From a virus: a stretch of 25,968 nt of DNA. Under the pieces are notes generated by a model. It was not told the origin of the DNA. It saw nothing but the letters and a program-made list of their open reading frames with translations, and made no database searches. Of the stretch, positions 1,133 to 10,289 are shown piece by piece. The stretch is from positions 1 through 25,968 of IMG/VR virus record IMGVR_UViG_3300043470_000337. One strand, 5' to 3'. The first letter of the stretch is position 1. Each line of letters opens with the position of its first letter. The translations under genes were made by a program, and so were the position numbers.

Positions 1133-1891
1133 TTAAATAAATTTCCAAATATACCCAGCACTTGTATAGCTCTTTTGTCTTAAACAGTTGTTAATACCTG
1201 TTCTAGATATATTTAATTCTCTAGCTGCTTCAGAAGCACTTTCCCAAATTCTCAACGGAGTAGAAGATTCATGTGAATATTGAGCTACTTGTTTATTAGC
1301 TTTTTTCTTTTCAGGTACTTTACCTATACCAACTTTAATTTCATATTTTCTCCATTGAAAACCTGCAATTAAGTGTCTCCTACCATTAATAGCTCTTGTA
1401 ATATCAGCATGTAAACAATCTACATCTTTACATGCATCATTTATACTACTATATGTTTTAACAAAGTTTCCGTCTTTATCATATGCAGTTACTGAAATAC
1501 TGTATGGTTTTTGAGCTTGTTTATAAACATGGGATAAATGCTTTTTGGAATGTTGTATCTTTTTTTTCAACTGGGGACCTGGATTCTTTAATCCTGCACC
1601 TCCATCACACTGATTTATTAAAGTTCCAGTATTAAGATCTTTTCTACCATACTTTTTAATAAGCTTCATTTCTAATTTAAAAGCTTCTTCTTTAGTAAGT
1701 TTATCTTTTACAATCTTAACATTATATGGACATATTCTTGCATAATTATGCCAAGCTGTTTTTCTTTTTTCAAAAGCAGATCTATATGCTCTTGAATAAA
1801 TTAATCCCTCTTTACTAATTAAAGACATTCCAACATAAAAAACTTCATTTATATCAGTTCTAACATGGATATATACATAATAACTTCTCAT
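1133..1891 (-). CDS. GIY-YIG homing endonuclease with NUMOD1 repeats
   Basis: 252 residues. The N-terminal GIY-YIG nuclease domain (about residues 4-90) shows YYVYIH and VFYVGMS as the two halves of the signature, a conserved Arg in the SRAYR segment, and the Glu-bearing KEEAFKLEMKLIKKYGR helix. Two modular DNA-binding repeats of NUMOD1 type follow: VTAYDKDGNFVKTYSSINDA...IAGFQWRK, and RIWESASEAARELNISRTGI...GYIWKFI. These free-standing nucleases cut intron- or gene-lacking alleles and spread by repair. The gene stands alone with spacers of about 20-45 nt on both sides and no split host gene is visible, so it appears to be an intergenic invader. Family assignment is confident; target site unknown. 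Confidence 0.9.
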   Translation of the reverse strand: MRSYYVYIHVRTDINEVFYVGMSLISKEGLIYSRAYRSAFEKRKTAWHNYARICPYNVKIVKDKLTKEEAFKLEMKLIKKYGRKDLNTGTLINQCDGGAGLKNPGPQLKKKIQHSKKHLSHVYKQAQKPYSISVTAYDKDGNFVKTYSSINDACKDVDCLHADITRAINGRRHLIAGFQWRKYEIKVGIGKVPEKKKANKQVAQYSHESSTPLRIWESASEAARELNISRTGINNCLRQKSYTSAGYIWKFI

Positions 1892-9358: not shown

Positions 9359-9405
9359 TCACAACCTACTATATACAATACCATCATACTCTCTTATATG
9401 CAACA

Positions 9406-9435
9406 TTTGCAATTACAAAAAAATTTATATATTTG
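9406..9435 (+). promoter_or_regulatory. Bacteroidota-type promoter for the right arm
   Basis: TTTG (9406-9409) and TATATTTG (9428-9435) are separated by 18 bp, matching the Bacteroidota -33 (TTTG) and -7 (TAnnTTTG) elements. The best promoter match in the window; it would start a short RNA at about 9441. Confidence 0.75.
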
Positions 9436-9440
9436 TAGAA

Positions 9441-9509
9441 GTTTCTTGCATAGAGAAGTTTATTTACTCAGACAGACCCTGGTAGTAATGTACCGGGGTT
9501 TTGTTTTTT
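9441..9509 (+). ncRNA. candidate short RNA or aborted leader
   Basis: Between the promoter and a strong terminator lies about 70 nt without an ORF. It contains a TTTCT...AGAGAA hairpin near its 5' end and ends with the terminator. It could be a small regulatory RNA, or a leader where right-arm transcription stops unless antiterminated. Confidence 0.45.
9477..9509 (+). terminator. Rho-independent terminator
   Basis: An 8-bp stem CCCTGGTA/TACCGGGG (one G-T pair; 9477-9484, 9491-9498), loop GTAATG, then TTTTGTTTTTT. Confidence 0.85.
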
Positions 9510-9512
9510 ATA

Positions 9513-9520
9513 TATCTTTG
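9513..9520 (+). promoter_or_regulatory. possible -7 element before the structured RNA
   Basis: TATCTTTG fits TAnnTTTG. No TTG is seen at the expected -33 position, which lies inside the preceding terminator stem, so this promoter is tentative. Confidence 0.4.
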
Positions 9521-9526
9521 TAGCAT

Positions 9527-9752
9527 AACTCATTCGGCATCCCTTTAGAACTGCCCGCTCAGAGTGAGTCTTTCCCCCCCTGTGGTGAGATAACCATAGG
9601 CCAAGTTCCAGAACACATACCGTAAGATCTGTGTCCCAGCTCTGGACTTTTTGGGTACTGGGAAAGCGGACTGAAGGTACCTAGGTTTGTATAACTAGTA
9701 TCCGGCCCAGATAAGTTTCTCTGATCAAGAAGTACTGTCTGGGTTTTTTTTT
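9527..9752 (+). ncRNA. candidate multibranched noncoding RNA
   Basis: About 225 nt without a plausible ORF, between a promoter-like element and a terminator. An outer stem CCTTTAG/CTGAAGG (9542-9548, 9671-9677) and an inner stem CCGCT/AGCGG (9555-9559, 9665-9669) enclose CCTGTGGT/ACCATAGG (9579-9586, 9593-9600, a perfect 8 bp with G-T) and GTTCCAGA/TCTGGAC with ACACA/TGTGT inside (9605-9647). A GCTCA/TGAGT hairpin (9557-9569) would compete with the inner stem. Nested long-range and local pairings of this kind point to a folded RNA. No known family (6S, RNase P, tmRNA, riboswitch) was recognised. Confidence 0.6.
9706..9752 (+). terminator. terminator of the multibranched RNA
   Basis: Stem CCCAGA/TCTGGG (9706-9711, 9738-9743), a 26-nt loop with a small inner TTCT/AGAA hairpin, followed by nine T. 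Confidence 0.75.
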
Positions 9753-9778
9753 GTATCTTAGCAGTAAGATATGTGTTT

Positions 9779-9832
9779 CCTGGTCAACGGACCGGGTAAG
9801 AAGTCCCGGGTATTACAGTCCGGGATTTTTTT
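9779..9832 (+). promoter_or_regulatory. attenuator-like set of mutually exclusive hairpins
   Basis: Four segments can pair with their neighbours: CCTGGTC (9779-9785), GACCGGG (9790-9796), TCCCGGG (9804-9810), CCGGGA (9820-9825). Pairing 1:2 leaves 3:4 free to form a terminator (6-bp stem plus seven T). Pairing 2:3 would prevent it. This is the logic of an attenuator placed before the HEXXH gene. What would switch it is not visible. Confidence 0.5.
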
Positions 9833-9833
9833 A

Positions 9834-9841
9834 TATATTTG
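9834..9841 (+). promoter_or_regulatory. -7 element directly before the HEXXH gene
   Basis: TATATTTG fits TAnnTTTG, and the ATG follows after 4 nt. If used, transcription would begin at or next to the start codon, giving a leaderless mRNA. No good -33 element is seen. Confidence 0.45.
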
Positions 9842-9845
9842 CTTT

Positions 9846-10289
9846 ATGAAAAAGTTTGACATGGGTAAATATATTCTGTTAGCAGGAGATAATGCTACAG
9901 AGATCTTTGATTATTATAAGGTACCGGAGATGCATGGTCTTAACAGAGCTGATGCCCAGGCAGAAGAGATTGATAAGACTAAAGGCAACGGGGTTTATAT
10001 TTATGGGTGGACTAATTATGACCCGGCTGATAAGAAGCTAACAGCAAAAGCTCCATACAAACCATTCTTGTTTCTTAACTTAAGTACATTTAAGAAGTAC
10101 TCCCTTACAGAAAAAGCTACAGCTGTTATGCATGAAACTATGCACATGAGTATACTCTTGAATAACTGGAAGATTACTGACAAAGAAGAAGAAGCAATAG
10201 GCTTTGCTGAAGATGAAGCTAATAAGATTGTAGAAAAGTTAGGGTTTAATAAAAAGGAAGAACCTAAGAAAGGGTTTTTTAAAAAGTAA
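9846..10289 (+). CDS. small HEXXH zinc-metallopeptidase-like protein
   Basis: 147 residues from MKKFDMGKYILLAGDNATEI. The frame is open upstream to 9771, but that part is the attenuator-like hairpin array. The key feature is AVMHETMHMSI, an HEXXH motif at residues 96-100 in a helix, with a Glu-rich EEEAIGFAEDEA segment about 14-24 residues later that could supply the third zinc ligand. The N-terminal 90 residues are alpha/beta and the tail is basic (KKEEPKKGFFKK). There is no signal peptide, so it would act in the cytoplasm or in the virion. It is the first gene of the right arm and shares TAATG with the next gene. Substrate unknown; a host-takeover or prohead protease role is conceivable. 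Confidence 0.7.
   Translation: MKKFDMGKYILLAGDNATEIFDYYKVPEMHGLNRADAQAEEIDKTKGNGVYIYGWTNYDPADKKLTAKAPYKPFLFLNLSTFKKYSLTEKATAVMHETMHMSILLNNWKITDKEEEAIGFAEDEANKIVEKLGFNKKEEPKKGFFKK

What the first reader, a model, noticed from the sequence alone, without database searches (positions are those of the whole stretch)
9527..9752. Candidate multibranched RNA of about 225 nt in the divergent hub
Between a -7-like element and a nine-T terminator, two nested long-range stems (9542-9548/9671-9677 and 9555-9559/9665-9669) enclose further hairpins. No ORF is present. It could be a phage regulatory RNA, a polymerase-binding RNA, or an RNA that affects host defence.
Basis: seen in the sequence. Interest (0 to 1): 0.7.

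Follow-up and report, generated by a model that had tools for sequence, protein, structure and literature searches.

The report
Phage RNA mimicking an AbiF antitoxin
This virus of Bacteroidota-type bacteria carries a small RNA gene built from two copies of the RNA hairpin that such bacteria use to keep their AbiF 'suicide' toxin switched off, so the virus probably makes its own antidote to stop infected cells from shutting down.

Summary
Window 9520-9752 (+) is a real structured RNA gene with no ORF, between a Bacteroidota-type -7 element and a nine-T terminator. The two long-range stems are not supported. The conserved fold is a chain of hairpins.

A covariance model built only from hairpins upstream of cellular abi_2/AbiF toxin genes finds exactly two places in the 26-kb window, 9603-9650 (E 4e-5) and 9522-9573 (E 8e-5). 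Both lie in this RNA. In cells these hairpins sit just upstream of AbiF, a HEPN toxin related to the ancestor of Cas13. Published work shows that such RNAs (RCd22, AbiFr) bind and neutralise AbiF. No abi_2 gene was found in the window or in 23 related phage records. The RNA is an accessory cassette: present in 12 of 80 relatives at this site, cleanly missing in others. Its two modules carry signatures that belong, in cells, to two different AbiF clades. The terminator loop keeps a 6-nt palindrome in three sequence versions, suggesting RNA dimerisation.

Best reading: a phage-borne, probably bivalent antitoxin-RNA mimic that blocks AbiF-type abortive infection. It works like pseudo-ToxI or RNA anti-CRISPRs, but for AbiF. 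Rfam has no such phage family. Function is inferred, not tested.

The parts
9512..9519 (+). Bacteroidota-type -7 promoter element TATCTTTG (form TAnnTTTG); no TTG was seen at the usual -33 spacing
   Evidence: Sequence; consensus from general knowledge. Kept in L015/L425, and left at the empty site of L002
9522..9573 (+). AbiFr-like module 1, CGCUCA subtype
   Evidence: R1 (cellular AbiF hairpins only) 24.3 bits, E 8e-5, filters off. Apical letters vary in L015, L158 and L271 while the CCC and AGAAC flanks are kept
9577..9601 (+). P1 hairpin CCCCUGUGGUGAGAUAACCAUAGGC, role unknown
   Evidence: Fold z -4.8; arms change together in relatives, CCUGUGG/CCAUAGG and CCUGUAG/CUGCAGG
9603..9650 (+). 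AbiFr-like module 2 (P2/P3), loop AUACCGUAAGAUCU with bulge CCCAG
   Evidence: R1 25.3 bits, E 4e-5. The same loop letters lie upstream of cellular abi_2 genes
9651..9703 (+). P4/P5 hairpin with conserved internal loop GGGAAAG / GUAUAAC
   Evidence: Covariation; fold z -3.2
9704..9752 (+). P6, terminator hairpin with inner stem and nine T
   Evidence: 98.2% of cells paired and 9 of 15 pairs changed on both sides in 19 relatives; fold z -3.2
9722..9727 (+). Palindrome UGAUCA in the P6 loop, candidate site for pairing of two RNAs
   Evidence: Self-complementary in all 19 rows of A3, in three versions UGAUCA, UGGCCA, UAGCUA

Best explanation
The locus is a small-RNA gene of a Bacteroidota phage whose product mimics the antitoxin RNA (AbiFr) of AbiF-type abortive-infection systems. 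In the host, a short AbiFr hairpin encoded just upstream of abiF binds the HEPN RNase AbiF and holds it inactive; if host transcription fails during infection, the toxin would be freed and stop the cell. The phage transcribes its own RNA from a -7 promoter to an intrinsic terminator. The RNA carries two AbiFr-like hairpins of two subtypes, which in cells belong to two different AbiF clades, so one RNA could occupy an AbiF dimer or serve against two AbiF lineages. A palindromic loop in the terminator hairpin may pair two RNAs. Shown here: the RNA gene, its conserved fold, the two AbiFr-like modules, no toxin gene found in the phage records, and accessory distribution. Inferred: expression, binding to AbiF, neutralisation, dimerisation, benefit to the phage.
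For: Model R1 made only from cellular hairpins hits the window twice, both in this RNA, next hit E 2.7. Cellular hairpins lie just upstream of abi_2 genes; 35 of 73 R1 places in 395 Bacteroidota genomes are 67-190 nt upstream of Abi_2. The AbiF protein matches PDB 8vz6, an Abi family protein solved with its ncRNA, E 3e-44 (PMC12737573). RCd22 binds and neutralises AbiF in trans (PMC12373285). AbiFr subtypes follow AbiF clades and the two modules bear two of the signatures. No Abi_2 in the window or 23 phage records. Accessory, with a clean empty site in a close relative. The same loop sits in unrelated phage RNA scaffolds. Precedent: pseudo-ToxI of phage PhiTE (PMC3475682).
Against: No expression or binding data. 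R1 scores in the window are moderate (24-25 bits) and its E-values rough. About half of the cellular R1 places are not next to a found Abi_2 gene, and some hairpins precede hsdR or DUF3800, so the partner could be another protein. The host is unknown. Phage sk1, for which an AbiF-protecting region is reported, has no such hairpin. Pseudo-ToxI as a single repeat was inactive in one assay, so resemblance need not mean activity.
Confidence: 0.7

Rival explanations
1. A phage regulatory or attenuator RNA that has borrowed a stable hairpin type: the AbiFr-like hairpins serve only RNA stability or termination, and the resemblance to AbiF antitoxins reflects common ancestry without a present role in defence.
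For: Several phage copies of the P3 hairpin lie at gene ends or before T runs; the RNA is co-oriented with tRNAs in 22 of 79 loci.
Against: The loop and bulge letters are conserved while the stems vary and covary, which fits recognition rather than termination; a separate terminator hairpin is already present (P6); two different AbiF-clade signatures occur in one RNA.
Confidence: 0.12
2. The RNA targets another RNA-controlled defence protein that shares this hairpin, such as the gene products behind it before hsdR or DUF3800, rather than AbiF itself.
For: The hairpin precedes hsdR in Algoriphagus and DUF3800 in Spirosoma; 38 of 73 R1 places have no Abi_2 found beside them.
Against: AbiF is the commonest neighbour and RNA subtypes follow AbiF clades; published antitoxin RNAs of this general kind bind AbiF (PMC12373285).
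Confidence: 0.1
3. The RNA is the antitoxin half of a toxin-antitoxin pair of the phage itself, with an unrecognised toxin gene elsewhere in its genome.
For: Cellular AbiFr always works with a toxin; the window is only a fragment of the genome.
Against: No Abi_2 match in 24 phage records, many over 100 kb; the RNA changes place relative to neighbouring genes, so no fixed partner gene.
Confidence: 0.05
4. A polymerase-binding (6S-like) or packaging RNA.
For: Size of about 225 nt and a stable fold; possible dimerisation recalls phage packaging RNA (general knowledge).
Against: No Rfam match; no single long helix with central bubble; missing from close relatives, unlike an essential packaging RNA.
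Confidence: 0.01

Closest known systems
AbiFr / RCd22 / abiF RNA motif (Rfam RF03085), antitoxin RNAs of AbiF abortive-infection toxins
   Same: Short hairpin with conserved loop and 3' bulge; R1 built from the cellular Bacteroidota version recognises both modules; RCd22 also carries two motifs in one RNA (PMC12373285).
   Different: No abi_2 gene beside it; the two modules are of different subtypes; extra hairpins P1, P4/P5 and P6 not found in cells; no match to RF03085 itself.
Pseudo-ToxI RNA of phage PhiTE (PMC3475682)
   Same: Phage-encoded copy of a bacterial antitoxin RNA, without the toxin, that suppresses abortive infection.
   Different: Different toxin family (ToxN, not a HEPN AbiF), a pseudoknot repeat that gained activity by expansion in the laboratory; here an old, widespread RNA gene with its own promoter, terminator and covarying structure.
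RNA anti-CRISPRs, Racrs (PMC10651486)
   Same: Small phage RNAs that copy an RNA part of a defence system and are found without its proteins.
   Different: Racrs copy CRISPR repeats and were reported for all types except type VI; this one copies the antitoxin of AbiF, a relative of the Cas13 ancestor.

Membership tests
AbiF antitoxin RNA (AbiFr, type III toxin-antitoxin) | Hairpin with the AbiFr sequence-structure consensus | tested here: met
   R1 from cellular hairpins only: E 4e-5 and 8e-5, next E 2.7
AbiF antitoxin RNA (AbiFr, type III toxin-antitoxin) | Lies just upstream of an abi_2/AbiF gene | tested here: not met
   No PF07751 match in the window or 23 related records; hence a mimic, not a member of a TA pair
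AbiF antitoxin RNA (AbiFr, type III toxin-antitoxin) | Binds and neutralises AbiF | not testable with these tools
   Needs an experiment
Rfam RF03085 (abiF RNA motif) | Match to the Rfam model | tested here: not met
   No RF03085 match up to E 10 at 9400-9860; cellular Bacteroidota loci of the same kind did not match it either at E 1
Phage antitoxin-RNA mimic (pseudo-ToxI kind) | Phage RNA resembling a host antitoxin RNA, with no toxin gene | tested here: met
Phage antitoxin-RNA mimic (pseudo-ToxI kind) | Made during infection and suppresses abortive infection | not testable with these tools
   Needs an experiment
6S RNA | Match to a 6S family and single long helix with central bubble | tested here: not met
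RNA anti-CRISPR (Racr) | Copy of a CRISPR repeat | not tested
   No comparison with CRISPR repeats was made

The most novel reading that the evidence does not exclude
A widespread, modular class of phage 'antidote' RNAs: each RNA strings together hairpins that copy antitoxin RNAs of several toxin lineages (two AbiF clades here, other RNA-controlled defence proteins through P1 and P4/P5), and uses a palindromic terminator loop to form dimers that fit dimeric HEPN toxins.
Probability: 0.3. Interest if true: 0.92.

Novelty: new variant of a known kind. Interest (0 to 1): 0.8.

Why it matters
AbiF is held to be the ancestor of the RNA-targeting CRISPR effector Cas13, yet I found no report in the paper library of how natural phages counter it with RNA. 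A common RNA family carrying AbiF antitoxin hairpins would be evidence that AbiF is a real anti-phage barrier in aquatic Bacteroidota, would extend RNA mimicry from ToxIN and CRISPR to HEPN abortive-infection toxins, and would give a ready set of natural, subtype-specific AbiF inhibitors. It also gives many unexplained RNAs in IMG/VR phages a testable function.

Tried and rejected
Rfam at gathering and relaxed thresholds: only hits far below the curated scores (best E 0.002), taken as chance. BLASTN against INPHARED phages, whole element and P3 hairpin: no match, so no annotated phage relative of the RNA. Phage sk1, chosen because an AbiF-protecting DNA region is reported for it (title listed in the references of PMC12737573), searched with R1 and Rfam: no AbiFr-like hairpin. 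P4-P6 model in 395 Bacteroidota genomes: one hit at E 0.09 only, taken as chance. The 16-letter pattern was too loose (some chance hits inside coding sequence), so only longer patterns and models carry claims. A first alignment of all AbiFr subtypes together (A1) was misaligned and not used. Alignment A4 misplaces P2 by one column in some rows, so P2 covariation was counted directly. A first census used a frame shifted by one; the corrected run is.

Full report
WHAT WAS CHECKED. The window is a 25,968-base IMG/VR virus fragment with genes leftward on the - strand and rightward on the + strand. The 226-base stretch 9527-9752 folds at -71.7 kcal/mol as + strand RNA (z -2.5) while the - strand is ordinary (z -0.44). 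It has no + strand ORF of 20 aa or more, a TATCTTTG element upstream and nine T at the end.

RELATIVES. The core recurs in contigs that encode a close relative of the neighbouring ferredoxin-like protein, both at the same place and downstream of that gene. The 19-letter inner part of the terminator hairpin occurs in 104 stretches of IMG/VR (two of those read are inside coding-like sequence, the rest are this RNA). About 70-80 distinct sequences carry the RNA from P3 to the terminator. The array is modular: hairpins P1, P2/P3, P4/P5 and P6, with variable additions.

STRUCTURE. P6: 19 distinct sequences, 98.2% of cells paired, 9 of 15 pairs with changes on both sides, no shuffle as good on covariation score. 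P4-P6: 15 of 25 pairs with changes on both sides. In P2 the third pair appears as A-T (33), G-C (17) and T-A (11), with 2 G-T and 13 G-A rows, the last being the minimal type. The P6 loop is nine letters with a 6-letter palindrome at positions 3-8, in three versions (UGAUCA, UGGCCA, UAGCUA), all self-complementary in the 19 rows. One further copy in L220 deviates, with loop GACG. This suggests a loop-loop dimer of the kind known from the retroviral dimer initiation site (general knowledge), but it is not shown.

THE KEY STEP. A 20-letter P3 pattern scanned over GTDB genomes gave 22 stretches, mostly Bacteroidota. In about ten, the hairpin lies a few tens of bases upstream of an ORF that reads as an Abi_2 protein (Pfam on representatives; PF07751 in seven of these genomes). 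One such protein matches PDB 8vz6, an Abi family protein solved with its ncRNA, at E 3e-44 (PMC12737573). An independent survey of Abi_2 genes in 395 Bacteroidota genomes, blind to the motif, showed an upstream hairpin of this general build in the loci read, most with the same loop letters. From 13 cellular hairpins I built model R1 (covariation). Eleven come from Abi_2 surveys and two are second hairpins in L335 and L336; none is viral. Searched without filters over the whole window, R1 gives two hits above background, 9603-9650 (E 4e-5) and 9522-9573 (E 8e-5); the next is E 2.7. Module 1 had not been recognised before that search. Other phage copies score up to 63.7 bits. R1 E-values are rough because the calibration was short.

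SPECIFICITY. In the same 395 genomes R1 finds 73 places; 35 are 67-190 nt upstream of Abi_2 on the same strand, and 29 of 44 full-length Abi_2 genes have one. The rest have no Abi_2 match beside them; in Algoriphagus and Spirosoma the hairpin also precedes hsdR and DUF3800. A tree of 36 AbiF proteins shows that hairpin subtypes follow the protein: the CGCUCA subtype is one group (98/97), the GCAUNCC subtype another (100/99). Module 1 of the window bears the CGCUCAG signature. Module 2 bears the AUACCGUAAGAUCU loop with a CCCAG bulge, which in cells belong to the GCAUNCC group and its NACCNGG sister group.

NO TOXIN, ACCESSORY DISTRIBUTION. No Abi_2 gene was found in the window or in 23 related phage records (records may be fragments). 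Among 80 distinct upstream regions of the 9846 gene, 12 have the RNA there and 7 have it downstream. Relatives with 97% identical protein (L427, L429) lack it, and L002 shows a clean empty site with only the promoter element left. In 22 of 79 loci the RNA lies within 500 nt of a tRNA gene, always on the same strand. P4-P6 was not found in cells at E 0.01.

MECHANISM. From the literature: AbiF is a toxic HEPN RNase, dimeric, bound and neutralised by a ncRNA upstream of its gene; RCd22 has two motifs and works in trans (PMC12373285). Inferred: the phage supplies the antitoxin when host AbiFr runs out during infection, so AbiF stays blocked. Two modules per molecule and a possible dimer fit a dimeric toxin or two toxin lineages. 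The precedent is pseudo-ToxI of PhiTE (PMC3475682); RNA anti-CRISPRs are the parallel for CRISPR, with no type VI example reported there (PMC10651486). I found no paper describing such phage RNAs against AbiF in the held library; most subscription papers are missing from it.

LIMITS. Expression, binding and effect on infection are untested. The partner could be a protein other than AbiF. P1 and P4/P5 have no assigned role. The host is inferred to be Bacteroidota from the promoter form and from where the cellular hairpins occur.

Noticed in passing
L085, L086, L088, L090, L095, L097, L113, L114, L116, L306, L321 and others: The P3 hairpin GCAUACCGUAAGAUCUGC also stands alone as GUACC...GGUCUUUUU in many other phage contigs, often at gene ends or beside tRNA genes.
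   Followed up: partly
L083, L092, L112, L120, L126, L149, L160, L163, L184: The same P3 loop occurs in a different RNA scaffold (AUCGAA...AUCGUU...), mostly inside tRNA arrays of phages.
   Followed up: no
L181, L293, L295, L301, L326: A third scaffold has the P3 hairpin followed by GAAUAGCCCAAGGCAUAAG, perhaps an alternative form of P4.
   Followed up: no
L339, L340, L344, L350; L341, L346: AbiFr-like hairpins lie directly upstream of type I restriction hsdR genes in Algoriphagus and of DUF3800 genes in Spirosoma/Cyclobacteriaceae MAGs; L339 has one before AbiF and one before hsdR 2.5 kb apart.
   Followed up: partly
L339 504-568 and 1750-1815; L335; L338: DUF3800-VIII RNA matches (some below the Rfam cut-off) lie near AbiF loci on the opposite strand.
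   Followed up: no
window 9427-9510: A second small hairpin unit with its own -7-like element (TATATTTG) and terminator just upstream; fold z -4.5.
   Followed up: partly
window 9752-9833: Three further hairpins ending in a terminator, between the RNA and the gene at 9846; fold z -4.8. Not AbiFr-like by R1. A -7-like element TATATTTG lies a few bases before the ATG.
   Followed up: partly
window 9846-10289 (+): Gene next to the RNA has an HExxH-like VMHETMHM motif; most relatives align from the M at 9846, so the true start is probably there and not at 9771.
   Followed up: partly
window 1133-1891 (-): HNH homing endonuclease with NUMOD domains.
   Followed up: no
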